From positions 1 through 64,000 of the forward strand of contig NZ_FOPY01000013.1 of the NCBI RefSeq assembly GCF_900113605.1: 64,000 nucleotides of DNA, in the 5' to 3' direction. The notes under the pieces were generated by a model. That model did no database searches. It had not been told where the DNA came from and worked only from the letters and a program-made list of their open reading frames with translations. This DNA comes from Modicisalibacter xianhensis (GTDB lineage: Bacteria; Pseudomonadota; Gammaproteobacteria; Pseudomonadales; Halomonadaceae). Shown piece by piece: positions 3,561-32,369 of the stretch; the stretch's first letter is position 1; each line of letters opens with the position of its first letter. The translations under genes and the position numbers were made by a program.

Positions 3561-4807
3561 TGAATGCAATGGAAATACTGGCGTTGTTTGCCATCGGTTA
3601 CCCCAGCCTGATGGCGACCGTATGGATCTGTGGCGGTATCTATTATTACTTCCATTGGGAGCGAAAACAGACAACACGGCCGACCTCGGCCAATGATCCC
3701 AATGCCCCGCGGGTGACGGTGCTGGTGCCGTGCCATAACGAAGGCCCGAACATCGACGAGACCATTGGGCATCTGTTCCGGCAGAACTATCTCAATCTCG
3801 AGATCATTGCCATCAATGATGGAAGCCGTGACGACACGGGTGAACGCCTCGATGCACTAGCCCGCGAGAACCCGACGCTGAAGGTCCTGCATCAGGTCAA
3901 TCAGGGCAAGGCCAGCGCCATGAACAATGGCCTGGCGCATGCCAGCGGCGAGATCATTGTCGGTATCGATGGCGATGCGGTGCTCGATTACGACGCCGTA
4001 GGCTGGATGGTCGAACACTTCCTGCGCAGCTCACGTGTCGGCAGCGTTACCGGCAACCCACGAGTCCGTACCCGCTCCACGGCGATCGGCAAGATTCAGA
4101 CCGGCGAGTTCTCATCGATCATCGGACTGATCAAGCGCGCCCAACGCATCTACGGCATGGTCTTTACCATCTCGGGGGTCATCTGTGCCTTTCGCCGCAG
4201 CGCGCTCGAGCAGATCAATGGCTGGAGCACGGACATGATCACCGAGGACATCGATGTCAGCTGGAAACTTCAGCTTTCCGGATGGCAGGTCCGTTACGAG
4301 CCTCATGCCATGTGTTGGGTATTGATGCCGGAAACCCTGCGGGGCCTGTTCCGTCAGCGTCTTCGCTGGGCACAAGGCGGCGCCGAAGCTTTCCTGCGCC
4401 ATTTCAGCAAGGCCATTCACTGGCGCAACCGTCGCTTCTGGCCGCTACTCGCCGAATATATCGTCAGCATCGTCTGGTGCTACTCGATAATCACCTTAAT
4501 GTTGCTGGGCGTAATCGACCTGATCTTGACGGTCCCGAGCTGGGAAGCGGCCGAGGATGTCCTGGGCTGGTCGGGAGGCCTGCTTATTTTCCTTTGCCTG
4601 ATCCAGTTCAGTGTCAGCTTCTATATCGACAGCCGATACGACCGGACCATTGTCAACTGCCTGTTCTGGAGCATCTGGTATCCCTACTTTTACTGGATAT
4701 TGAACATGATGACCGCTGTCATCGCGTTCCCCAAAGCCGTGGTACGTCGCCGCGGTCAGCTCGCCATCTGGAGTAGTCCCGATAGAGGAGAAGCCTTTCG
4801 TGAATAA
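3560..4807 (+). CDS. pgaC: PgaC, poly-beta-1,6-N-acetyl-D-glucosamine synthase
   Basis: PgaC is the inner-membrane family 2 glycosyltransferase that polymerises UDP-GlcNAc into PNAG. The ~415-residue protein has an N-terminal membrane helix, then the GT2 domain with VLVPCHNEGPNIDE, the nucleotide-sugar motif GIDGDAVLDYD, the catalytic ITEDIDVSW and the processive-synthase QRLRW motif. Two or more membrane helices follow from about residue 300. ATG 3560 overlaps the pgaB stop (TGATG) and has GGGGGA upstream; a GTG at 3557 is less likely. It overlaps pgaD by 8 bases, so the two are surely co-translated. Confidence 0.95.
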   Translation: MNAMEILALFAIGYPSLMATVWICGGIYYYFHWERKQTTRPTSANDPNAPRVTVLVPCHNEGPNIDETIGHLFRQNYLNLEIIAINDGSRDDTGERLDALARENPTLKVLHQVNQGKASAMNNGLAHASGEIIVGIDGDAVLDYDAVGWMVEHFLRSSRVGSVTGNPRVRTRSTAIGKIQTGEFSSIIGLIKRAQRIYGMVFTISGVICAFRRSALEQINGWSTDMITEDIDVSWKLQLSGWQVRYEPHAMCWVLMPETLRGLFRQRLRWAQGGAEAFLRHFSKAIHWRNRRFWPLLAEYIVSIVWCYSIITLMLLGVIDLILTVPSWEAAEDVLGWSGGLLIFLCLIQFSVSFYIDSRYDRTIVNCLFWSIWYPYFYWILNMMTAVIAFPKAVVRRRGQLAIWSSPDRGEAFRE

Positions 4808-24668: not shown

Positions 24669-26837
24669 TTAGACGCCGATCTGGCCGCCATCGGCCTTCT
24701 GGATCACTACCGTCGAAGCACGCGGACGCACATCGCCGCTGGCTGCGTTAGTGGCTGGCTGCATGATGGCCCCGGGATCGGCCGGCCAGTTGCCCGGGTG
24801 CTGGATGTTGATGAACAGCGCCGTCTTGTCCGGCGTGGCGAAGATGCCCGTCACTTCGCAGCCGTTCGGGCCCACCGCGAAGCGCTTGAGCTGCGCCTGG
24901 TCGCTGGCATCGATCACGGCGGCATCGCCTTCATTCATGCTGACCGAGGACGGCACCACGGCCAGGACCTGGTCGTTGGTGTAGCTGGCGACACCATCGT
25001 AGCCATTATCGGTTTCGATCCACAGGATGCCCTGACCATCGCCGCGATCGTCGTACCACAGACCATCGGGGCTGGCGAACTGGTTGAGCTCGGTCAGGCC
25101 GGACAGGTTGTCGGAATCCGTGGCCGCCGCTCCGAAGACGAACACTTCCCACTCGAATGTCGTCTCTTCCGGTGACGGCTCGCGCCATCGAATGACCTGA
25201 CCGCCTTCGTTGTCGGCACGCGGATTGGGCGCATTGACCGGTGCAGAAGCGTAACCCACGCCCAGCCCGTCGATATCGCTGCCGCCGTTGGAATAGGTCG
25301 GATCGGTGCCCTCTGCGGTACGGTCGGTATTGTTGGTCAGGGTCATGTAGACCTCACCGGAAACCGGATCGACAGTTCCCCATTCCGGGCGGTCCATGGG
25401 CGTGGCACCCATCAGGTCCGCGGCGTCACAGGTGTGTATTATGACCCCGGCCAGGTCGTCGTCGGCCAACCCCAGAGCGCTGGAGAGGCGCTGTCCATCC
25501 TGCGTCGTGGCATCGGCGGTCAGCGGCAGCCACTCACCAGTGCCATCGGCATTGAACTTGGCAACGTAGAGCGTGCCTTGGTCCATGTACTTGGCACCAA
25601 TGGCCAGACGGTCATAGTTGCCGCCAGCCCGATTGGCGTCGGCCGGATCCCAGACAGCATCGGAGACGAACTTGTAGATATATTCGTTGCGTGAGTCGTG
25701 ACCGGAATAGAAGACCACGGGCTCGCCCTCGACCAGCTTGCCCGGCCAGCACCCTTCGTGGCGGAAACGACCCAACGCTGTGCGCTTGACGGCACGTGTG
25801 TTGGTATAGGGATCGATCTCTACGATATAGCCAAAGGTGCGCGGTTCGTTGCGGTAGTCGTCGGCTGCAGTAGCACCTCTGGGCGTGGCATTGAAACGTG
25901 CGAATTCACCACCCACTTCACTGGGGTCGCCGGCAGCGGTTTCCCACCCATAACGTCCGCGTCCTGTCGGTATGTCCAGACGATTATCGTCAGCTTCACG
26001 GCCGTTATCCTTGACGAAGACTTCCGGCCAGTTCTCTTCACACGTCAGGTAAGTGCCCCACGGTGTGTAGCCACTGGCACAGTTATTGTTAGTGCCGCGC
26101 GTCTTCGTGCCATCGGTTGAATAAGCGGTAACAACATACTGACTGCCCGCCACCGGCCCACTCAATTCCATCGGCGTAGCCGAGGTGAATCGACGGTTGT
26201 AAGGAGAGTTGGGAATGTGCGTCCAGGTCCCGTCTAACTGCTTCTGTACACGGACAATCGTCACGCCATGCGCATTGATTTCCGTGCGCACTTCGTCGGC
26301 AGGGCGTACGCCACTGCTGGCATTAGTCGCACCGCCCTGCGGTGCCCAAAGTGCGCCCTGATCGATATATTCGTTGTTCAGGGAGAGCAGGAAATCGCTG
26401 GATGCATCGGCATCATTCAGCGGAAAATGGTACATACCGTCATGATGCATGCCGACGCTATTGGCCTGAATTTGCGGCGTCATCTGACGGTCAGCACTCC
26501 AGTTGGGCGCCATGCTGTTCAGCGGCGTCCCCCAGGGTATCAGGACCTGAGCGGTGTACCCTTCCGGCACGACGACAGCGTCGGTCATTGAGCCCGCAAT
26601 CGACTCGAAGGCAAGGGCCAGGGCCGTCTTTTCAGGCAACTCTCCCTTCGGGACCTCGCCGTCACTGCCGAGATTGCTGCAACCTGTCAGGCCAAAACCG
26701 CCCAGCACCGTCATCGCAGCGACGCCCAGACCACCCTGCATGATACCGCGGCGCGAGACGTGCTTTTCCAGAATATAAGAGAACGGCTCGTTACCGCTGC
26801 GGTTCAAGATATAGTGATTTTCGATTTCCTTGCTCAT
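24669..26837 (-). CDS. phoX: PhoX-family (DUF839) phosphatase, Tat-exported lipoprotein
   Basis: The DUF839/PhoX family contains calcium- and iron-dependent extracytoplasmic alkaline phosphatases that release phosphate from organic esters. The 722-residue protein has a long N-region and a twin-arginine motif (SRRGIMQG, R29-R30). A hydrophobic stretch and a lipobox (LTGC, C53) follow, so it is likely a Tat-exported lipoprotein, using the TatABC system encoded nearby. Family features include WGTYLTCEENWPEVFV, YIVEIDPYTNTRAVKRTALG, GRFRHEGCWPG and FYSGHDSRNEYIYKFV. It is convergent with ppk and has PhoB-like half-sites upstream. Assignment to the family is strong; enzyme activity is inferred. 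Confidence 0.88.
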   Translation of the reverse strand: MSKEIENHYILNRSGNEPFSYILEKHVSRRGIMQGGLGVAAMTVLGGFGLTGCSNLGSDGEVPKGELPEKTALALAFESIAGSMTDAVVVPEGYTAQVLIPWGTPLNSMAPNWSADRQMTPQIQANSVGMHHDGMYHFPLNDADASSDFLLSLNNEYIDQGALWAPQGGATNASSGVRPADEVRTEINAHGVTIVRVQKQLDGTWTHIPNSPYNRRFTSATPMELSGPVAGSQYVVTAYSTDGTKTRGTNNNCASGYTPWGTYLTCEENWPEVFVKDNGREADDNRLDIPTGRGRYGWETAAGDPSEVGGEFARFNATPRGATAADDYRNEPRTFGYIVEIDPYTNTRAVKRTALGRFRHEGCWPGKLVEGEPVVFYSGHDSRNEYIYKFVSDAVWDPADANRAGGNYDRLAIGAKYMDQGTLYVAKFNADGTGEWLPLTADATTQDGQRLSSALGLADDDLAGVIIHTCDAADLMGATPMDRPEWGTVDPVSGEVYMTLTNNTDRTAEGTDPTYSNGGSDIDGLGVGYASAPVNAPNPRADNEGGQVIRWREPSPEETTFEWEVFVFGAAATDSDNLSGLTELNQFASPDGLWYDDRGDGQGILWIETDNGYDGVASYTNDQVLAVVPSSVSMNEGDAAVIDASDQAQLKRFAVGPNGCEVTGIFATPDKTALFINIQHPGNWPADPGAIMQPATNAASGDVRPRASTVVIQKADGGQIGV

Positions 26838-26913
26838 GGTCCCCTCATTGAATGGCAGTTCTCAAATTCTGTCGTGATTGCCAATCGAACGGGGACGACG
26901 TTAAGCCTACAAA

Positions 26914-26953
26914 ATGACAAGTTGGTTAACGATTAAAGTCATGACCATGACAG
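26914..26953 (-). promoter_or_regulatory. PhoB-like half-sites upstream of phoX
   Basis: On the minus strand CTGTCAT (26947-26953) and TTGTCAT (26914-26920) start 33 bases apart, three 11-base periods. The intermediate positions are only weakly matched (4 of 7 and 3 of 7). This could be an extended degenerate Pho box 76 to 115 bases before the phoX start. Confidence 0.35.
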
Positions 26954-26961
26954 GCTTTAAC

Positions 26962-27477
26962 TCAATTACTGCGGAAAGTATCCAACGCCCTGAGATCGAC
27001 GCTATCGACCTCTACCGGTAGCCGGCATTCCTCGCGTGCCTGGCGGACCCGTAAGCGTTCGGCCAGCCGCTCGCTGTCGTCATCGAACGTGCGGCCGTTG
27101 AGATCGGCAAGTTGCTGCATGCCCTGGTGGTAAAAGGCCAGCAGGTCGAGCGCCTGCGGATCGTGGCGCTCGAGTCCCGCCTGCCGCAACGCCGGCAAGT
27201 GAGCACTGACCCGGGACAGCTGGCGCTTGAGTTCCCAGGCGTAGCGTTGGTCACGCATCCCTGGCCGGTCGCGTAGCACAGCGACAACGACGCTGGTCGC
27301 CAGTAGCCCGAGCAGTACACCCAGTGCGTTCATGCCCAGGCTGGAGCCGAACTGCGACGTCAGCAACTGTGAGAACAGCAGGCCAAAGATGATGAACTGC
27401 CCGGCCACGATCACCGTCATGGTTTTCGCCTTGCGGCGATACTGCTCGGGATCGTGGGCTTCGAAGCGAAAACGCAT
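26962..27477 (-). CDS. DUF3087-like two-helix membrane protein
   Basis: The 171-residue protein has a charged N-terminus (MRFRFEAHDPEQYRRKAKTM) and two membrane helices around residues 20-40 (IVAGQFIIFGLLFSQLL) and 48-66 (MNALGVLLGLLATSVVVAV). A cytoplasmic helical domain ends in RALDTFRSN. It resembles the DUF3087 family of Pseudomonas and Halomonas, whose function is unknown. It begins 29 bases after the aroG stop and is probably co-transcribed with it. Confidence 0.65.
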   Translation of the reverse strand: MRFRFEAHDPEQYRRKAKTMTVIVAGQFIIFGLLFSQLLTSQFGSSLGMNALGVLLGLLATSVVVAVLRDRPGMRDQRYAWELKRQLSRVSAHLPALRQAGLERHDPQALDLLAFYHQGMQQLADLNGRTFDDDSERLAERLRVRQAREECRLPVEVDSVDLRALDTFRSN

Positions 27478-27506
27478 GCCGGACAGTCTCCTTCAGGTCA
27501 AACAGG

Positions 27507-28577
27507 TCATTGATCGCGTAGCCGGGCTGCGGCGAGATCGAGCAAGTGTTCCGTAGTTTCCCAGCCCAGGCAGGCATCGGTCACCGAGACGCCGTAGCGC
27601 AACGCCGCCTTGTCGAGTGGCTGCTTGCCTTCGTTGAGATGGCTCTCGATCATGACGCCGATCAGCGCAGATTCTCCGGCCAAGCGCTGCGCCAGCACAT
27701 CGAGCAGCACCTCGCTCTGGCGACGATGATCCTTGCGGGAATTGGCATGACTGCAATCGACCATGAGATTGGGCCGCAGACCTGCCTCTTCCAACTGACG
27801 ACGGCTTTCTGCGACGCTTTCGGCATCGTAGTTGGGCCGGCCATGGCCGCCACGCAGGACGAGGTGGGTATGTGCATTGCCCTGCGTCTCGTGCATGACC
27901 GGCCGACCGTACAGGTCCATGCCGAAATGCCGGTGTCCTTGGGCGGCAGCACGCATGGCGTCGATGGCAACCCCGACCCCGCCGTGGGTGGCGTTCTTGA
28001 ATCCCACAATTGCCTCGAGCCCGCTGGCCATCTCGCGATGAATCTGCGACTCGGTAGTCCGCGCCCCGATTGCCGCCCAGGCAAGCAGGTCATCGAAGTA
28101 GGCCGCAGCCATAGGCTGGAGTAGTTCGGTGGCGACCGGCAAGCCCAAGGCTGCGACATCGCGCATCAAACGACGCGACAAGGCCAGACCGTGGGCCATA
28201 TCGTCGCTGCCATCCAGGTGGGGATCGTAGGCCAGCCCCTTCCAGCCGACCGTGGTGCGCGGCTTCTCGACGTAGACGCGCATCACCAGCAACAGGCGGT
28301 CCTCGACGCGCCGGGCCAGCGCTGCCAGACGTTCGGCATACTCTAGTGTGGCGCGCGGATCATGGACGGAACAGGGGCCGACCACGACCAGCAGGCGGTC
28401 GTCATCGCCATCGAGGATGGCCCGAATGGCCTCGCGCTGCTGGGCGATGGAACGCATTAACTCTTGATCGAGCGGGAGCTGCCGACGCAATTCGGCGGGT
28501 GTTGGCAGGGAATTTCCGGCCTGGCGGGCCGGTGCGGAAGCACGTTGGGGGTCGAGCTGGGGCACTGTAGCAGTCAT
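27507..28577 (-). CDS. aroG: 3-deoxy-7-phosphoheptulonate (DAHP) synthase, class I
   Basis: It condenses phosphoenolpyruvate and erythrose 4-phosphate in the first committed step of aromatic amino acid synthesis. The 356-residue protein has the class I (AroFGH) signatures VVVGPCSVHDP, MRVYVEKPRTTVGWKGL, GFKNATHGG and MVDCSHANSRKDHRRQ, with metal ligands in the VGPCS and DCSHAN regions. AGGAAA stands 8 bases before the ATG. Two aromatic-rich leader ORFs and a terminator precede it, so transcription attenuation by tRNA charging is the likely control. Which amino acid inhibits the enzyme allosterically cannot be read with confidence. Confidence 0.95.
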   Translation of the reverse strand: MTATVPQLDPQRASAPARQAGNSLPTPAELRRQLPLDQELMRSIAQQREAIRAILDGDDDRLLVVVGPCSVHDPRATLEYAERLAALARRVEDRLLLVMRVYVEKPRTTVGWKGLAYDPHLDGSDDMAHGLALSRRLMRDVAALGLPVATELLQPMAAAYFDDLLAWAAIGARTTESQIHREMASGLEAIVGFKNATHGGVGVAIDAMRAAAQGHRHFGMDLYGRPVMHETQGNAHTHLVLRGGHGRPNYDAESVAESRRQLEEAGLRPNLMVDCSHANSRKDHRRQSEVLLDVLAQRLAGESALIGVMIESHLNEGKQPLDKAALRYGVSVTDACLGWETTEHLLDLAAARLRDQ

Positions 28578-28613
28578 GGTGTTCGTTTCCTGGCTGGCTC
28601 GCAGCGGCGAGCG

Positions 28614-28775
28614 TCACTGGTTATCAAGACATCGTGATTGTCGTGTGCCACCCAGGATGCCCCGGCCGGAGGCGGCAGACTGGACCGACCGGGCGACGCT
28701 AAATCGCCAATACCCTGCACCATAACCGTAATCGTTCTTGCCATAGGCAGTGAAGGCGATGGGTGCGGTGGTCAT
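28614..28775 (-). CDS. Second aromatic-rich leader ORF upstream of aroG
   Basis: This is a 53-codon ORF on the minus strand, with AAGGAG 8 bases before its ATG. It lies between the attenuator terminator and aroG. Codons 11-25 read YGKNDYGYGAGYWRF: four Tyr, one Trp and one Phe in 15 codons. The remainder (SVARSVQSAASGRGILGG and onward) is ordinary low-complexity sequence. It ends 36 bases before aroG. A bulged hairpin inside it (28659-28669 with 28685-28694) repeats the CCCGGTCGG core of the upstream terminator but has no T tract. It may be a second, possibly translational, sensing element or a degenerate duplicate of the first leader. A functional small protein is not excluded. Confidence 0.6.
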   Translation of the reverse strand: MTTAPIAFTAYGKNDYGYGAGYWRFSVARSVQSAASGRGILGGTRQSRCLDNQ

Positions 28776-28821
28776 TTGTCTGGCTCCTTGTCGAGCAATG
28801 AAATGTGTACGGTGCAACGAA

Positions 28822-28854
28822 AAACCCCCGGTCGGGGTTGCCGACCGGGGGTTT
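28822..28854 (-). terminator. Attenuator terminator in the aroG leader
   Basis: A 14-base-pair stem (AAACCCCCGGTCGG / CCGACCGGGGGTTT) with a 5-base loop is followed by TTTTT on the minus strand. It lies 40 bases after the stop of the first leader ORF and 47 bases before the second. Upstream segments that can pair with its loop and inner stem suggest an antiterminator. Confidence 0.9.
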
Positions 28855-28861
28855 CAGTGGA

Positions 28862-28887
28862 GGCAACCCTGCTGGTCAGGGTGCGCC
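28862..28887 (-). promoter_or_regulatory. Alternative-pairing segments of the aroG attenuator
   Basis: On the minus strand, segment B (28877-28887, GGCGCACCCTG) can pair with segment A inside leader 1 (28920-28927, GGTGCGCC, 8 perfect pairs). It can instead pair with segment C (28862-28871, CAGGGTTGCC; ACCCTG with CAGGGT). Segment C can also pair with GGCAACCC at 28835-28842 across the terminator loop (8 perfect pairs), which would block the terminator. These complementarities are visible; the switching order is inferred. Confidence 0.55.
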
Positions 28888-28894
28888 TCTTGGC

Positions 28895-29032
28895 TCAGGC
28901 CGTCTCGGCCGGGCCAACGGGCGCACCGCGACTAAACCAGTACCAATAGCCATAACCTGCCCAACGACACGCACGTACCGCACCCGGCAACTGCCGGAAA
29001 GCACTCGTGTGTGTAAGAGGCATGGCGCTCAT
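28895..29032 (-). CDS. Aromatic leader peptide 1 of aroG
   Basis: This is a 45-codon ORF on the minus strand starting MSAMPLTHTSAF, with GGAG 6 bases before its ATG. Codons 24-33 encode WAGYGYWYWF: three Trp, three Tyr and one Phe among ten codons, which are control codons for all three products of the DAHP synthase pathway. It stops just before the alternative RNA structures and the intrinsic terminator. This is the layout of a ribosome-mediated transcription attenuator, as in trp and phe operons. Two codons after the aromatic run lies segment A of the switch. Confidence 0.8.
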   Translation of the reverse strand: MSAMPLTHTSAFRQLPGAVRACRWAGYGYWYWFSRGAPVGPAETA

Positions 29033-29084
29033 GGTTGTCTCCGATATCGATGGGCTGCGACCTGTCACAAAGCAGCGTTCTTTC

Positions 29085-29112
29085 ATCCTACACGGAAGCT
29101 GCCGTTTGACAA
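29085..29112 (-). promoter_or_regulatory. Candidate promoter of the aroG leader transcript
   Basis: On the minus strand TTGTCA (29107-29112) and TAGGAT (29085-29090) are separated by 16 bases. The predicted start is about 45 bases before the first leader ORF. Confidence 0.45.
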
Positions 29113-29129
29113 CCCTGCCAGCGTCAACG

Positions 29130-29258
29130 TTACAGCCCGAAGTACTTGATCCAGATAATGGTTGCCGGCAGGCAGCTCATGCCGACCACCACGACCAGCC
29201 CCAAAAAGAGGGACATGAATCCGCTGGTATCCTTGAAATTGGGGTCGTACTCGGCCAT
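29130..29258 (-). CDS. 42-residue single-pass membrane protein
   Basis: This small ORF on the minus strand starts ATG 29258 with a strong GAGGAG 8 bases upstream and ends TAA at 29130. It begins MAEYDPNFKDTSGFMSLF, followed by one hydrophobic helix (LGLVVVVGMSCLPATIIWI) and the end KYFGL. It stands alone between folM and the aroG leader. The ribosome-binding site, acidic N-terminus and single helix with a Lys-Tyr end make it a credible small membrane protein. I do not recognise a family, and the function is unknown. Confidence 0.65.
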   Translation of the reverse strand: MAEYDPNFKDTSGFMSLFLGLVVVVGMSCLPATIIWIKYFGL

Positions 29259-29337
29259 GTCGTTGTCTCCTCACCTTGTTGTCGTCGTCGGGACAGATTG
29301 GCCTGCATTCTAGCGTGTTCCGCCAACGGCTGCAGTG

Positions 29338-30051
29338 TCAGCGCAGATGCCGCCCACCATCCACGGGCAGGGTGATGCCGGTCACGTAACGGTTGTCGAG
29401 CAGGTAGCGCAGGCTTTGGTAGATCACGCCCGGCCCGGGCACCATGGCCATTGCCGACTTGGCCCGAGCCTTGGCGGCGTAGGCCTCGTCATCGCCCTCG
29501 TTTAGCATGATCAGCGCCGGTGCGATGGCGTTGACCTGAATGTCTGGTGCGTACATGGCCGCGAACGACAGCGTAAGATTGTCCAGCCCCGCCTTGGTGG
29601 CCGCGTAGGCAGCGTGCTTTTTCGAACCTTTGCTGGCGACGTAGTCGGTCATGTGCACGATATCGCGCTGCGGCTCGCTGCAGGCATCCAGCAATTCACG
29701 ACAGTGCAGGTTGATCAAGTAAGGCGCCTGCATGTGGACCCGGAACAAGCGCTCGAAGTTGCTTCCAGCATCATCGCCGCTCGAATCCGGCGCCCAGTCG
29801 CTGGCATTGTGTACGATGGCACGCAGCGAACGTACCTGGGCCTTCAATCGGTCGATGAAGTCGAGAATGCCGGCTTCGCTGGAGAAATCCGCCGACAGCG
29901 TGCCAATCCCCTGCTGGCGAAGCGCATCGATTTCAGGACGCTCGCGGCGGTAGGTGACGATGACCTCATGCCCGTCGGCAACCAGCCGCTCGGCACAATG
30001 GCGCCCCAGACGCTGGGCGCCGCCGGTGATCAGAATTGGCGAGGCGCTCAT
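29338..30051 (-). CDS. folM: FolM-type dihydromonapterin reductase (short-chain dehydrogenase)
   Basis: E. coli FolM is an NADPH-dependent short-chain dehydrogenase that makes tetrahydromonapterin and has weak dihydrofolate reductase activity. The 237-residue protein has the cofactor motif ITGGAQRLG, the HNAS motif, the catalytic YxxxK in AAYAATKAGLDNLT, the FolM-like HMTDYVASKGSKKH and a C-terminus VDGGRHLR matching FolM. Its start overlaps the flavin reductase stop by four bases, so the two are translated together. Confidence 0.88.
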   Translation of the reverse strand: MSASPILITGGAQRLGRHCAERLVADGHEVIVTYRRERPEIDALRQQGIGTLSADFSSEAGILDFIDRLKAQVRSLRAIVHNASDWAPDSSGDDAGSNFERLFRVHMQAPYLINLHCRELLDACSEPQRDIVHMTDYVASKGSKKHAAYAATKAGLDNLTLSFAAMYAPDIQVNAIAPALIMLNEGDDEAYAAKARAKSAMAMVPGPGVIYQSLRYLLDNRYVTGITLPVDGGRHLR

Positions 30052-30848
30052 GATCCGTTCTCCGGCGTGGCATTATCGCCCTGTGTTCTAGCATCGCCGG
30101 ATTCTGGAATCAGTGGGTCACGTGGTGCATAGGCAAACACGTCAGAGTGTACCCGGGTCGCATCGAGCCCGAGCGGCGCTAAAGTATCGATACAGGCGTA
30201 GACCATGCCCGGCGACCCAGAAAGGTAGACGTCATAGCCGGAGACATCCGTGAGCGTGGCGGCCAGCGCCTCGTCGATACGCCCCAGGTGGACGTGTATG
30301 CGAGGCCCGGCGAACGTGCCACCCAGCGGAGTTTCCGAGACGGCATGGAAGGCGAAGTTGGGGTGCGTTTCGGCCCACTGGCGGGCGAGGCTTTCCAAAT
30401 AGAAGTCGCGCCGCTCGCGCACCGCCCACCAGAACGAGACCGGATGGTCGTGATTGGCCGCGAAGGCCGCCTCGAGCAGGGCTTTCATCTGGGCGAAGCC
30501 GGTGCCGGCGGCCACCATCAGTAACGGTCGGCCACTCGTCTCGTCCAGTACACACTCGCCACTGGGCATGCGCAGGGTCAGGCGCTGCGACTGCTGGATC
30601 ATTTCGCGCAGGCGCTGCGAATTGGAGCGCTCCGGCCAGTGCTGGATATGCAATTCGATGGTGCCATCGCCGCGATGGGCATTGGCAATGGAGAACGGCA
30701 CCCAGGTTTCATCGTCGAGCAACAGCTCGAGATACTGACCGGGAGCATGGGCAACCGCCTCGCTGCGGCCTTCCAGCTGCACGCGAAAGACGTCGGGCGT
30801 CAGGTCCTCTACCGAGATCACCTGGCAGGTCAGGGTCCTAGGCGTCAT
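30048..30848 (-). CDS. fre: NAD(P)H-flavin reductase (Fre-like)
   Basis: The 266-residue protein belongs to the ferredoxin-NADP reductase-like flavin reductases. It has the flavin-binding WVPFSIAN motif around residues 50-57, the pyridine nucleotide motif VAAGTGFAQMKALLEA around 112-127 and a C-terminal SGSPGMVYACID. A ~25-residue acidic tail follows the domain. It starts 33 bases after the ubiD stop. Fre-type enzymes supply reduced FMN, and UbiD needs prenylated FMN made from reduced FMN, so the pairing is functionally sensible. Substrate preference is inferred. Confidence 0.87.
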   Translation of the reverse strand: MTPRTLTCQVISVEDLTPDVFRVQLEGRSEAVAHAPGQYLELLLDDETWVPFSIANAHRGDGTIELHIQHWPERSNSQRLREMIQQSQRLTLRMPSGECVLDETSGRPLLMVAAGTGFAQMKALLEAAFAANHDHPVSFWWAVRERRDFYLESLARQWAETHPNFAFHAVSETPLGGTFAGPRIHVHLGRIDEALAATLTDVSGYDVYLSGSPGMVYACIDTLAPLGLDATRVHSDVFAYAPRDPLIPESGDARTQGDNATPENGS

Positions 30849-30881
30849 GCTTTCCTCAAATGGCTTGGTCAGGGGGGAGCA

Positions 30882-32369
30882 TCAGCGATGCAGCACCGCA
30901 GGCAGCGGAATACCCAGCTCATCCCAGCGGTCATCGACACGGGCCTTGATCCCGCTATCCATGACGATGGGCGTTCCCCATTCGCGCTCGGTCTCGCCGG
31001 GCCACTTGGTGGTGGCATCGAGGCCCATCTTCGAGCCCAACCCCGCCACCGGTGATGCGAAGTCGAGATAGTCGATGGGGGTATTTTCCACCATTACCGT
31101 ATCACGTGCCGGGTCCATGCGCGTGGTGATGGCCCAGATCACATCCTCCCACTGACGGGCGTCGACATCGTCATCGAGCACGATCACGAACTTGGTATAC
31201 ATGAACTGACGCAGGAAGCTCCATACGCCCATCATCACCCGCTTGGCATGCCCGGGATACTGCTTCTTCATGGTCACCACCGCCATGCGGTAGGAACACC
31301 CCTCAGGCGGCAGGTAGAAATCGACGATCTCGGGAAACTGCTTACGCAGAATCGGCACGAAGACCTCGTTGAGTGCCAGGCCCAGGATCGCCGGCTCGTC
31401 CGGGGGACGACCGGTATAGGTCGAATGGTAGATGGGGTCGCGGCGATGCGTGATGCGCTCAACGGTAAAGACCGGGAAGGTCTCGACCTCGTTGTAATAG
31501 CCGGTGTGGTCGCCGTAGGGGCCTTCCGGGGCAGTATCGTCGGGATAGATGAAGCCTTCCAGTACAATCTCGCTGGACGCCGGCACCTCGAGGTCGGCAT
31601 GCCCGCATTTGACCAGTTCTGTGCGCGAGCCTCGCAGCAGCCCGGCGAAGGCGTACTCGGAGAGCGTGTCGGGCACCGGTGTCACTGCGCCGAGAATGGT
31701 TGCCGGGTCGGCACCCAGCGCCACGGCCACCGGGAAAGGCTCACCGGGGTGGGCCTGCTGCCACTCCTGGAAATCCAGCGCTCCGCCTCGGTGCGACAAC
31801 CAGCGCATGATCAGGCGATTCCTGCCAAGCTTCTGCTGCCGGTAGATGCCCAGGTTCTGGCGCGTCTTGTGCGGGCCCTTGGTGACCACCAGCGCCCAGG
31901 TCACCAGCGGTGCCACGTCGCCCGGCCAGCAGTGCTGGATGGGAATGCGATCGAGATCGACCGCATCGCCTTCGAGTACGACCTCCTGCACCGGCGCCTT
32001 GCGCAGCGTCTTGGGGCCCATGCTCATCACCTGTCGGAACACCGGCAGCTTGTCGATGGCATCGCGGAACCCCTTGGGCGGCTCCGGCTCCTTGAGAAAG
32101 GCCAAGAGCTCGCCTACCTCGCGTAAGGCCTCCACCGAGTCCTGCCCCATGCCAAGCGCCACGCGGCGGGGAGTGCCGAACAGGTTACCCAGCACCGGCA
32201 TGCTGTGCCCCTTGACGTTCTCGAACAGCAGTGCCGGACCACCGGCCCGCAGCGTCCGGTCGCAGATCTCGGTCATTTCCAGGTAAGGGTCCACCTCGGC
32301 ACGTACCCTCACGAGTTCGCCGGACTCCTCAAGCGCCGCAATGAACTCACGCAAGTCCTTGTACTTCAT
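30882..32369 (-). CDS. ubiD: UbiD, 3-octaprenyl-4-hydroxybenzoate decarboxylase
   Basis: UbiD decarboxylates the ubiquinone precursor using prenylated FMN. The 495-residue protein begins [20 protein letters not shown] and has the family segments RHPDD-equivalent [40 protein letters not shown] and the catalytic-region [12 protein letters not shown]. Length matches E. coli UbiD (497). GGGGAGAAGGG stands upstream of the ATG, just after a stable hairpin at 32397-32424. Confidence 0.96.

What the first reader, a model, noticed from the sequence alone, without database searches (positions are those of the whole stretch)
28895..29032. Leader peptide with seven aromatic codons in ten precedes aroG: a probable Trp/Tyr/Phe-sensing attenuator
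A 45-codon ORF with a good ribosome-binding site encodes WAGYGYWYWF (3 Trp, 3 Tyr, 1 Phe). It is followed within 40 bases by a 14-base-pair intrinsic terminator with a T5 tract, then by the DAHP synthase gene. Leader attenuators of trp, phe and his operons use the same plan. One leader mixing codons for all three end-products fits the first enzyme of the common pathway. I do not know a description of such a mixed leader for aroG in this group.
Basis: partly seen in the sequence, partly recalled or inferred. Interest (0 to 1): 0.82.

Follow-up and report, generated by a model that had tools for sequence, protein, structure and literature searches.

The report
Double aromatic leader switch before aroG

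Summary
In detail: a 45-codon ORF (28895-29032, minus strand) with WAGYGYWYWF, a good ribosome-binding site, a promoter-like site and a 13-bp terminator, upstream of a DAHP synthase gene. In 76 of 76 distinct loci with a DAHP synthase at least 56% identical (Halomonadaceae, Pseudomonas and others) such a leader is present. A covariation test singles out the four helices of a his-type attenuator among 28 segment pairs, so attenuation is well supported. Rfam's 'Pseudomonas sRNA P15' appears to be this element: all hits found above its cut-off lie upstream of a DAHP synthase, though the window itself scores below it. It is present in 60 of 76 loci with an identical TGGCGATTTA; 41 of the 60 have a covarying H-type pseudoknot just downstream, whose 3' arms can in many genomes be drawn paired with the aroG ribosome-binding site. 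Six of six named Acinetobacter/Moraxellaceae loci show the same tandem layout. Leader 1 is a known kind of mechanism with an unusual three-amino-acid input; no description of the tandem or of leader 2 turned up in ten paper searches. How leader 2 works is inferred. No wet-lab evidence here.

The parts
29085..29112 (-). promoter-like site of the leader transcript: TTGTCA - 16 - TAGGAT
   Evidence: TTG(T/C)CA-16-TAGGAT occurs upstream of the leader core in 22 of 75 rows, all among the Halomonadaceae rows, 141-218 nt before the TGG. In a looser scan 27 of 75 rows reach score 10 against 2 of 75 in shuffled regions. The bare consensus scan found 1 site with 0.8 expected
28895..29032 (-). leader peptide 1 ORF (45 aa), aromatic core WAGYGYWYWF at 28934-28963
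28920..28927 (-). segment B (GGTGCGCC), 9 nt after the start of the Phe codon
28880..28887 (-). segment C (GGCGCACC): pairs with B or with D
28862..28869 (-). segment D (GGGTTGCC): pairs with C, or with E as antiterminator
28835..28842 (-). segment E (GGCAACCC): loop and inner arms of the terminator, partner of D
28820..28853 (-). intrinsic terminator (13 bp, 5-nt loop, T-run)
28825..28958 (-). match to Rfam RF00627 'Pseudomonas sRNA P15' (36.1 bits, below the gathering score 70): end of leader 1 through the terminator
   Evidence: family context
28614..28775 (-). leader peptide 2 ORF (53 aa): MTTAPIAFTAYGKNDYGYGAGYWRFSVARSVQSAASGRGILGGTRQSRCLDNQ
28700..28709 (-). TGGCGATTTA (codons W-R-F plus A)
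   Evidence: identical in 60 of 60 distinct leader-2 rows, found with a pattern that fixed TGG but allowed other codons after it
28685..28691 (-). pseudoknot stem S1, 5' arm (CGGTCGG)
28671..28676 (-). pseudoknot stem S2, 5' arm (GCCGCC)
28663..28669 (-). pseudoknot stem S1, 3' arm (CCGGCCG)
28647..28652 (-). pseudoknot stem S2, 3' arm (GGTGGC)
28652..28657 (-). TCCTGG, overlapping S2 by one base; can pair with CCAGGA of the aroG ribosome-binding site
   Evidence: predicted duplex only
28588..28593 (-). CCAGGA, aroG ribosome-binding site
27507..28577 (-). aroG: DAHP synthase, type I (356 aa)

Best explanation
A two-tier leader controls the DAHP synthase gene. Tier 1 (well supported; the confidence below is for this tier plus leader 2 being a regulatory leader of some kind): transcription starts just upstream of leader 1. 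When charged tRNA for Trp, Tyr or Phe is scarce, the ribosome stalls in the aromatic run, B pairs with C, D is left free and pairs with E, the terminator cannot form and transcription runs on into aroG. When all three are plentiful the ribosome reaches the stop codon inside or beside the B-C hairpin, B:C is prevented, C takes D, and the terminator forms. This is the his-type scheme with a three-amino-acid input, which suits the first enzyme of the common pathway. Tier 2 (inferred, about 0.4): the read-through RNA carries leader 2, with a Tyr-rich run and W-R-F. In 41 of 60 rows a pseudoknot begins 12 nt past the start of the Phe codon, at the edge of a ribosome stalled there. I think stalling lets this pseudoknot stand, and that when it does not stand its 3' arms pair with the aroG ribosome-binding site, so leader 2 tunes translation of aroG.
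For: Conservation: 88 of 160 loci held by then encode a DAHP synthase at 56% identity or more to this one; with identical rows dropped, 75 distinct leader-1 rows plus one variant core (L055, WYGYF, read by eye) = 76 of 76. Trp, Tyr and Phe all occur in 75 of 75 leader-1 and 60 of 60 leader-2 cores. At core positions -5, -4 and -3, Phe, Tyr and Trp replace one another (57, 46 and 72 of 75 aromatic), as expected if any aromatic residue will do. Helices: of 28 segment pairs tested with own versus shuffled partners, B:C (z -10.6), C:D (-6.4), D:E (-9.4) and the terminator (-10.5) stand out; the other 24 lie between -2.5 and +4.2, which also serves as a control for relatedness. Rfam P15: 20 of 20 places in 19 of 194 genomes (one a short reverse-strand match inside another) and 14 of 14 over cut-off in 398 genomes have a DAHP synthase beside them. 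Leader 2: TGGCGATTTA in 60 of 60 rows. S1, at fixed positions, has 5-7 of 7 pairs in the 41 rows and 0-4 in the other 19. Pseudoknot on 40 distinct rows: 96.0% of cells paired (S1 93.9%, S2 98.3%), 12 cells changed on both sides (8 in S1, 4 in S2); 0 of 500 shuffles reach the observed percentage paired, changed cells or covariation score. A covariance model of leader 2 finds 12 of 293 genomes, 12 of 12 beside a DAHP synthase; five of these 12 genomes gave no row to the model under their own handle. Six of six named Acinetobacter/Moraxellaceae loci show leader 1, terminator, leader 2, DAHP synthase.
Against: No RNA or expression data. Segments were drawn by me after seeing the alignment. D:E has two central mismatches in part of Pseudomonas (7 of 75 rows GGGTCGCC/GGCCTCC(C), and similar ones). 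Leader 2 is absent by the W-R-F pattern in 16 of 76 distinct loci; one of these (L022) has a different aromatic ORF there, and eight leave little room before the DAHP synthase, so leader 2 is dispensable. The pseudoknot is lacking in 19 of 60 rows, and the 41 were picked by a pattern that asks for S2-like arms, so the S2 figure is partly by selection. One S1 pair is broken in 14 of 40 rows. In one search pairs with change on both sides (4) and further pair types (11) were reached by 10 and 107 of 500 shuffles, and sliding by +3 gave as many such pairs (4) and more such cells (18), though only 47.7% of cells paired. Folding with a masked ribosome gave no consistent change in access to the aroG site in pseudoknot rows. 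Covariation of the pseudoknot's 3' part with that site is marginal in two groups (132 and 120 of 5000 permutations) and absent in Pseudomonas (3125 of 5000). In 14 of 56 loci with an assigned start leader 2 ends -1 to +14 nt from the aroG ATG, so ribosomes finishing leader 2 could as well open that site: the sign of tier 2 is uncertain.
Confidence: 0.85

Rival explanations
1. Leader 1 is a classical attenuator, but leader 2 is not a sensor: it is a translated spacer or coupling ORF that delivers ribosomes to the aroG start.
For: In 14 of 56 loci with an assigned start, leader 2 ends -1 to +14 nt from the aroG ATG, three of them overlapping it; the other 42 lie at 25-52 nt, with a hairpin in between in the window and in others that I looked at.
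Against: All three aromatic residues hold in 60 of 60 rows, with a fixed TGGCGATTTA and in 41 a pseudoknot; pure coupling would not need them.
Confidence: 0.25
2. P15 and its relatives are a trans-acting small RNA that happens to lie upstream of DAHP synthase.
For: Rfam types RF00627 as a gene; P15 is one of the P. aeruginosa sRNAs of Livny et al. 2006 (that paper is not held; its P15 is mentioned in passages of PMC2375449 and PMC2527527).
Against: Above cut-off, in every case found, upstream of DAHP synthase on the same strand; ends a conserved aromatic ORF; covariation is that of an attenuator. [quoted passage not shown] A terminated leader could have a second life in trans, as I recall for rnTrpL.
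Confidence: 0.05
3. The leaders act as nascent-chain arrest peptides (sensing a free aromatic amino acid inside the ribosome, as I recall for TnaC) rather than through lack of charged tRNA.
For: The end of the core is fixed (W-F in 75 of 75 leader-1 rows, W-R-F in 60 of 60 leader-2 rows), although W was demanded by the search patterns and L055 lacks W-F.
Against: The sequence is fixed at the nucleotide level too (CGA 60 of 60; TTT rather than TTC, then A, in 60 of 60 and 75 of 75), which an arrest peptide does not explain, and upstream aromatic positions are interchangeable.
Confidence: 0.1
4. TTTA after W-R marks programmed frameshifting before the pseudoknot.
For: The spacing of about 8 nt from TTTA to S1 resembles frameshift signals (the resemblance is recalled); the +1 frame is open from TTTA to the aroG ATG in 36 of 56 loci, the window among them.
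Against: The +1 frame is closed in 20 of 56 loci, and a -1 slip meets TAG at once wherever the next codon is AGC or AGT (53 of 60 rows).
Confidence: 0.03

Closest known systems
his/leu/trp/phe operon attenuators of enterobacteria (textbook scheme, recalled)
   Same: Leader peptide rich in codons for the end product, chain of mutually exclusive hairpins, intrinsic terminator before the first gene.
   Different: Three amino acids read by one leader; the terminator is followed by a second leader, here with a pseudoknot.
AroR leader of aroF, Corynebacterium glutamicum (PMC11802643 and PMC4046766, passages seen)
   Same: Leader attenuator upstream of a DAHP synthase gene; codons for more than one aromatic residue (Phe-Tyr-Phe).
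   Different: No Trp in the run named; reported to respond to Phe limitation but not to Tyr; a single leader in the passages seen.
uORFC-13-1 upstream of aroF in Acholeplasma (PMC8632094, passages seen) and the aroF/aroH candidates in Shewanella (PMC2659441, passages seen)
   Same: Predicted leader or terminator control of DAHP synthase.
   Different: Predicted on Phe (Acholeplasma) or Tyr (Shewanella aroF); no tandem leader in the passages seen.
Rfam RF00627 'Pseudomonas sRNA P15'
   Same: Its full-length matches run from the end of leader 1 through the terminator, upstream of DAHP synthase.
   Different: Filed as a small-RNA gene; PMC2527527 suggested a riboswitch (passage); neither names a leader peptide. 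The window scores below its cut-off.
mgtCBR tandem attenuators of Salmonella (PMC3641672, listing with start of abstract seen)
   Same: Two short ORFs in one long mRNA leader.
   Different: Other gene and, as I recall, two different cues; here both leaders are rich in the same three amino acids.

Membership tests
ribosome-mediated transcription attenuator (his type) | short ORF with a ribosome-binding site and a run of codons for the pathway's end products | tested here: met
ribosome-mediated transcription attenuator (his type) | intrinsic terminator between leader and structural gene | tested here: met
ribosome-mediated transcription attenuator (his type) | mutually exclusive antiterminator and preceding hairpins | tested here: met
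   B:C, C:D, D:E and terminator covary, the 24 other segment pairs do not stand out
ribosome-mediated transcription attenuator (his type) | read-through rises when the cognate tRNAs are uncharged | not testable with these tools
   needs reporter or RNA data
Rfam RF00627 P15 | score at or above the gathering cut-off of 70 bits | tested here: not met
   the window scores 36.1 bits, E 7.7e-05; relatives score up to 125.6. So: same position and architecture, but outside the family as curated
Rfam Trp_leader / Phe_leader | match to the family model | tested here: not met
   not among the four matches up to E 1 in 26500-31500
H-type pseudoknot (leader 2) | two crossing stems with compensatory changes | tested here: met
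   S1: 3 of 7 pairs with changes on both sides; S2: 1 of 6; rows chosen partly by S2-like arms, absent in 19 of 60 leader-2 rows; no probing data
translational attenuator (leader 2) | alternative structure sequestering the ribosome-binding site of the gene | tested here: inconclusive

The most novel reading that the evidence does not exclude
DAHP synthase of many Pseudomonadales is governed by a two-tier device on one mRNA: a transcription attenuator that reads Trp, Tyr and Phe together, then a second aromatic leader whose ribosome stall works through a pseudoknot to control translation of aroG. The fixed UGGCGAUUUA marks a stall site with a requirement on the codons themselves, not only on the peptide.
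Probability: 0.4. Interest if true: 0.85.

Novelty: new variant of a known kind. Interest (0 to 1): 0.72.

Why it matters
It would give a concrete function to a catalogued 'small RNA' of Pseudomonas (P15), explain how the entry step of the aromatic pathway can be tuned to three end products at once, and offer a stacked design: a transcription switch followed by what looks like a translation switch, both reading the same amino acids. The entry enzyme is a target of metabolic engineering in organisms such as Pseudomonas putida, where removing or retuning these leaders would be a direct handle.

Tried and rejected
Programmed frameshifting at TTTA before the pseudoknot: the +1 frame is open to the aroG ATG in only 36 of 56 loci with an assigned start (20 closed), and -1 meets TAG wherever the next codon is AGC/AGT. 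Rejected.

Access of the aroG ribosome-binding site with a masked ribosome on leader 2: stall at Trp raised / lowered it in 3 / 2 of 14 type-I rows, 6 / 5 of 23 type-II pseudoknot rows, and 12 / 0 of 19 rows without pseudoknot; stall at Phe 3 / 1, 9 / 4 and 12 / 3. Not used as proof; pseudoknots cannot be folded by that program.

Unbiased window scans for helices between leader 2 and the aroG start: best z -4.0, -4.1, -4.8 and -4.7 in four groups of 623-760 tests each with spreads of 1.1-1.4 and maxima of +2.7 to +4.3, so only suggestive. I followed the type-I signal (n 14) and looked at two further groups; those groups were made by hand, and one Pseudomonas row (L089) sits in the 'Halomonas-like' one; starts of L010, L011, L013 and L054 were set by hand there.

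Weak Rfam matches sX11 and NsiR1 over the terminator and six P15 matches below cut-off without DAHP synthase within the fetched 1-1.5 kb (L172, L174-L178): taken as terminator look-alikes.

Second DAHP synthase of this genome (L161), its trpE (L162) and a trpE relative below cut-off (L163): no ORF of 8-80 aa with 5 or more aromatic residues in 10 codons in the stretches held. This filter would miss an ordinary Trp leader with two or three Trp.

The patterns, run on 40 named loci below 56% identity (L091-L130), flagged five, and missed leader 1 of all six Acinetobacter/Moraxellaceae loci (found only by the looser look). So absence in the other groups is not established.

Literature: ten paper searches in the held open-access library, and term look-ups inside PMC2375449, PMC3272035, PMC8395346, PMC8632094, PMC2965389, PMC2527527, PMC11802643, PMC4046766, PMC3466565 and PMC2659441, gave no description of an aromatic leader upstream of this DAHP synthase in Pseudomonas or Halomonas, nor of a tandem one. 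Listings were cut at 12-25 rows where more papers matched. Most subscription papers are not held, among them perhaps the survey of proteobacterial attenuators by Vitreschak et al. 2004 (recalled, not seen), so absence from print is not established.

Full report
What is there. On the minus strand a promoter-like site (TTGTCA-16-TAGGAT, 29085-29112) is followed by a 45-codon ORF with GGAG before its ATG (28895-29032) and the run WAGYGYWYWF, then by a 13-bp intrinsic terminator (28823-28853). The same hexamers (first one TTGTCA or TTGCCA) with the same 16-nt spacer occur upstream of the leader in 22 of 75 rows, all Halomonadaceae. The aromatic run is unlikely by chance: 3 of 104,698 ten-codon stretches in the window reach seven aromatic residues, two of them overlapping elsewhere, and none in 12 Markov shuffles. 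The next large ORF is a type I DAHP synthase (27507-28577; Pfam PF00793, NCBIfam aroFGH).

Which organism. The contig of relative G003 agrees with Modicisalibacter tunisiensis and that of G009 with Halomonas sp. EAR18 in length and position; both are listed as of the window's genus, so the window is from a Halomonadaceae bacterium near Modicisalibacter. This is inference.

Conservation of leader 1. Among 160 loci with a DAHP synthase, 88 have 56% identity or more to this one. With identical rows dropped, 75 have a leader whose core ends in TGG TTT A, and one (L055) a variant WYGYF core read by eye: 76 of 76. The search pattern demanded Tyr-Trp (or the YWYW / YWRW forms) then Phe, so Trp-Phe is partly by construction; TTT rather than TTC, and A as the next base, are not (75 of 75 each). 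They include Halomonadaceae, Pseudomonas, Stutzerimonas, Halopseudomonas and unnamed families f43 and f207. Cores contain Trp, Tyr and Phe in 75 of 75. At positions -5, -4 and -3 the residue is aromatic in 57, 46 and 72 of 75 rows, with Phe, Tyr and Trp exchanging.

Switch anatomy of leader 1. I aligned 75 leader-1 regions, drew eight segments on the alignment and asked for each of the 28 segment pairs whether a sequence's own two segments pair better than segments drawn from different sequences. Four stand out: B:C z -10.6, C:D z -6.4, D:E z -9.4, terminator z -10.5; the other 24 lie between -2.5 and +4.2 (first version). Examples of compensating change in D:E: GGGTTGCC/GGCAACCC in the window, GGGCTGCC/GGCAGCCC in L020, GTGCTGCC/GGCAGCAC in L045. 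These helices exclude one another in a chain, as in the his operon (recalled). In the window B begins 9 nt after the start of the Phe codon, and the stop codon lies in the B-C loop; in 41 of 75 rows the stop comes 18 nt after the start of the Phe codon, that is, directly after B. Hence the inferred logic: stall gives B:C and D:E (read-through); completion gives C:D and the terminator. In part of Pseudomonas D:E keeps six of eight pairs with two central mismatches.

Link to P15. Rfam RF00627, 'Pseudomonas sRNA P15', matches 28825-28958 at 36.1 bits, below its cut-off of 70. In 194 genomes of the order 19 have matches (E up to 0.01) at 20 places, one of them a short reverse-strand match inside another; 20 of 20 have a DAHP synthase beside them. 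In 398 genomes of the phylum 30 have matches; the 14 places over cut-off all lie beside a DAHP synthase; of the 15 loci newly fetched there 9 do and 6 do not, the 6 all below cut-off. Of ten leader loci scanned directly, 8 match P15 (7 over cut-off), while L021 and L058 do not reach E 0.1. PMC2375449 mentions P15 only as one of Livny's sRNAs; PMC2527527 says it may be a riboswitch. I conclude that P15 is this attenuator; the P. aeruginosa locus itself was not read here.

Leader 2. With a pattern that fixed TGG but allowed other codons for the next three positions, 60 distinct loci have it and 16 do not; all 60 read TGGCGATTTA. A fixed CGA and TTT point to a constraint on the codons or the RNA, for which I have no proven reason; slow decoding is a guess. 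Right after it 41 of 60 have two crossing stems (the rows were picked by a pattern asking for S2-like arms). S1, which was not asked for in that form, has 5-7 of 7 pairs in the 41 and 0-4 in the other 19. On 40 distinct rows 96.0% of cells pair, four pairs and 12 cells change on both sides; 0 of 500 shuffles reach the percentage, the changed cells or the covariation score, but 10 and 107 of 500 reach the number of changed pairs and of pair types; slid versions pair 20-50% of cells, and the +3 slide has as many changed pairs (4) and more changed cells (18). One S1 pair is broken in 14 of 40 rows. The sizes fit an H-type pseudoknot (S1 7 bp, 8-nt loop, S2 6 bp, 1-nt junction). A covariance model with S1 finds 12 of 293 genomes, 12 of 12 beside a DAHP synthase; seven of the 12 helped to build the model.

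How leader 2 may act. Its stop lies -1 to +14 nt from the aroG ATG in 14 loci and 25-52 nt in 42; four had no start assigned. In several type-I loci the 3' arm of S1 and the bases after it are complementary to the aroG ribosome-binding site (for example L018, L055, L060, L090); in the window TCCTGG next to S2 pairs with CCAGGA; in Pseudomonas S2's 3' arm often meets GCC-rich bases before the site. So pseudoknot and occluded start site may be alternatives. Statistics are marginal (132 and 120 of 5000 permutations in two groups, 3125 of 5000 in Pseudomonas), and masked-ribosome folding was inconclusive. The role of leader 2 is therefore inference.

Reach. Six of six Acinetobacter/Moraxellaceae loci among the 80 named hits show the same order with other sequences: leader 1 (for example MLKQPLISNAYYYFWQFR), a hairpin, GGTTGCCC, a terminator with GATCGGCAA, leader 2 (YFSNGYWFYFSQF and the like), DAHP synthase at 49-50% identity; a hairpin between leader 2 and DAHP synthase was read in the four printed. 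The sixteen loci without W-R-F include eight where leader 1 lies within about 190 nt of the DAHP synthase match, and one (L022) with a different aromatic ORF in place of leader 2.

Known and new. Attenuation of DAHP synthase is known in C. glutamicum (AroR, Phe-Tyr-Phe) and predicted in Acholeplasma and Shewanella. Tandem attenuators are known for mgtCBR (listing with start of abstract). I found no description of a leader reading Trp, Tyr and Phe together, nor of this tandem, in the searches named in Tried and rejected. I rate it a new variant of a known kind.

Noticed in passing
4664-4696 (+): Another dense aromatic stretch, FWSIWYPYFYW, in an open frame; perhaps a membrane segment.
   Followed up: no
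26962-27477 (-): Gene directly after aroG encodes a DUF3087 protein (Pfam PF11286); function unknown.
   Followed up: no
29130-29258 (-): 42-aa ORF, apparently a small membrane protein, between the dihydromonapterin-reductase-like gene and the leader promoter; no Pfam or NCBIfam match.
   Followed up: no
L097, L098, L099, L110, L113, L117: Acinetobacter/Moraxellaceae DAHP synthase genes have the same tandem layout with differently spelled leaders, suggesting either great age or convergence.
   Followed up: partly
L006, L009, L012, L014, L016: Halomonadaceae without leader 2 have a leader-1 core ending in GYWRWF, as if W-R-F had merged into leader 1.
   Followed up: no
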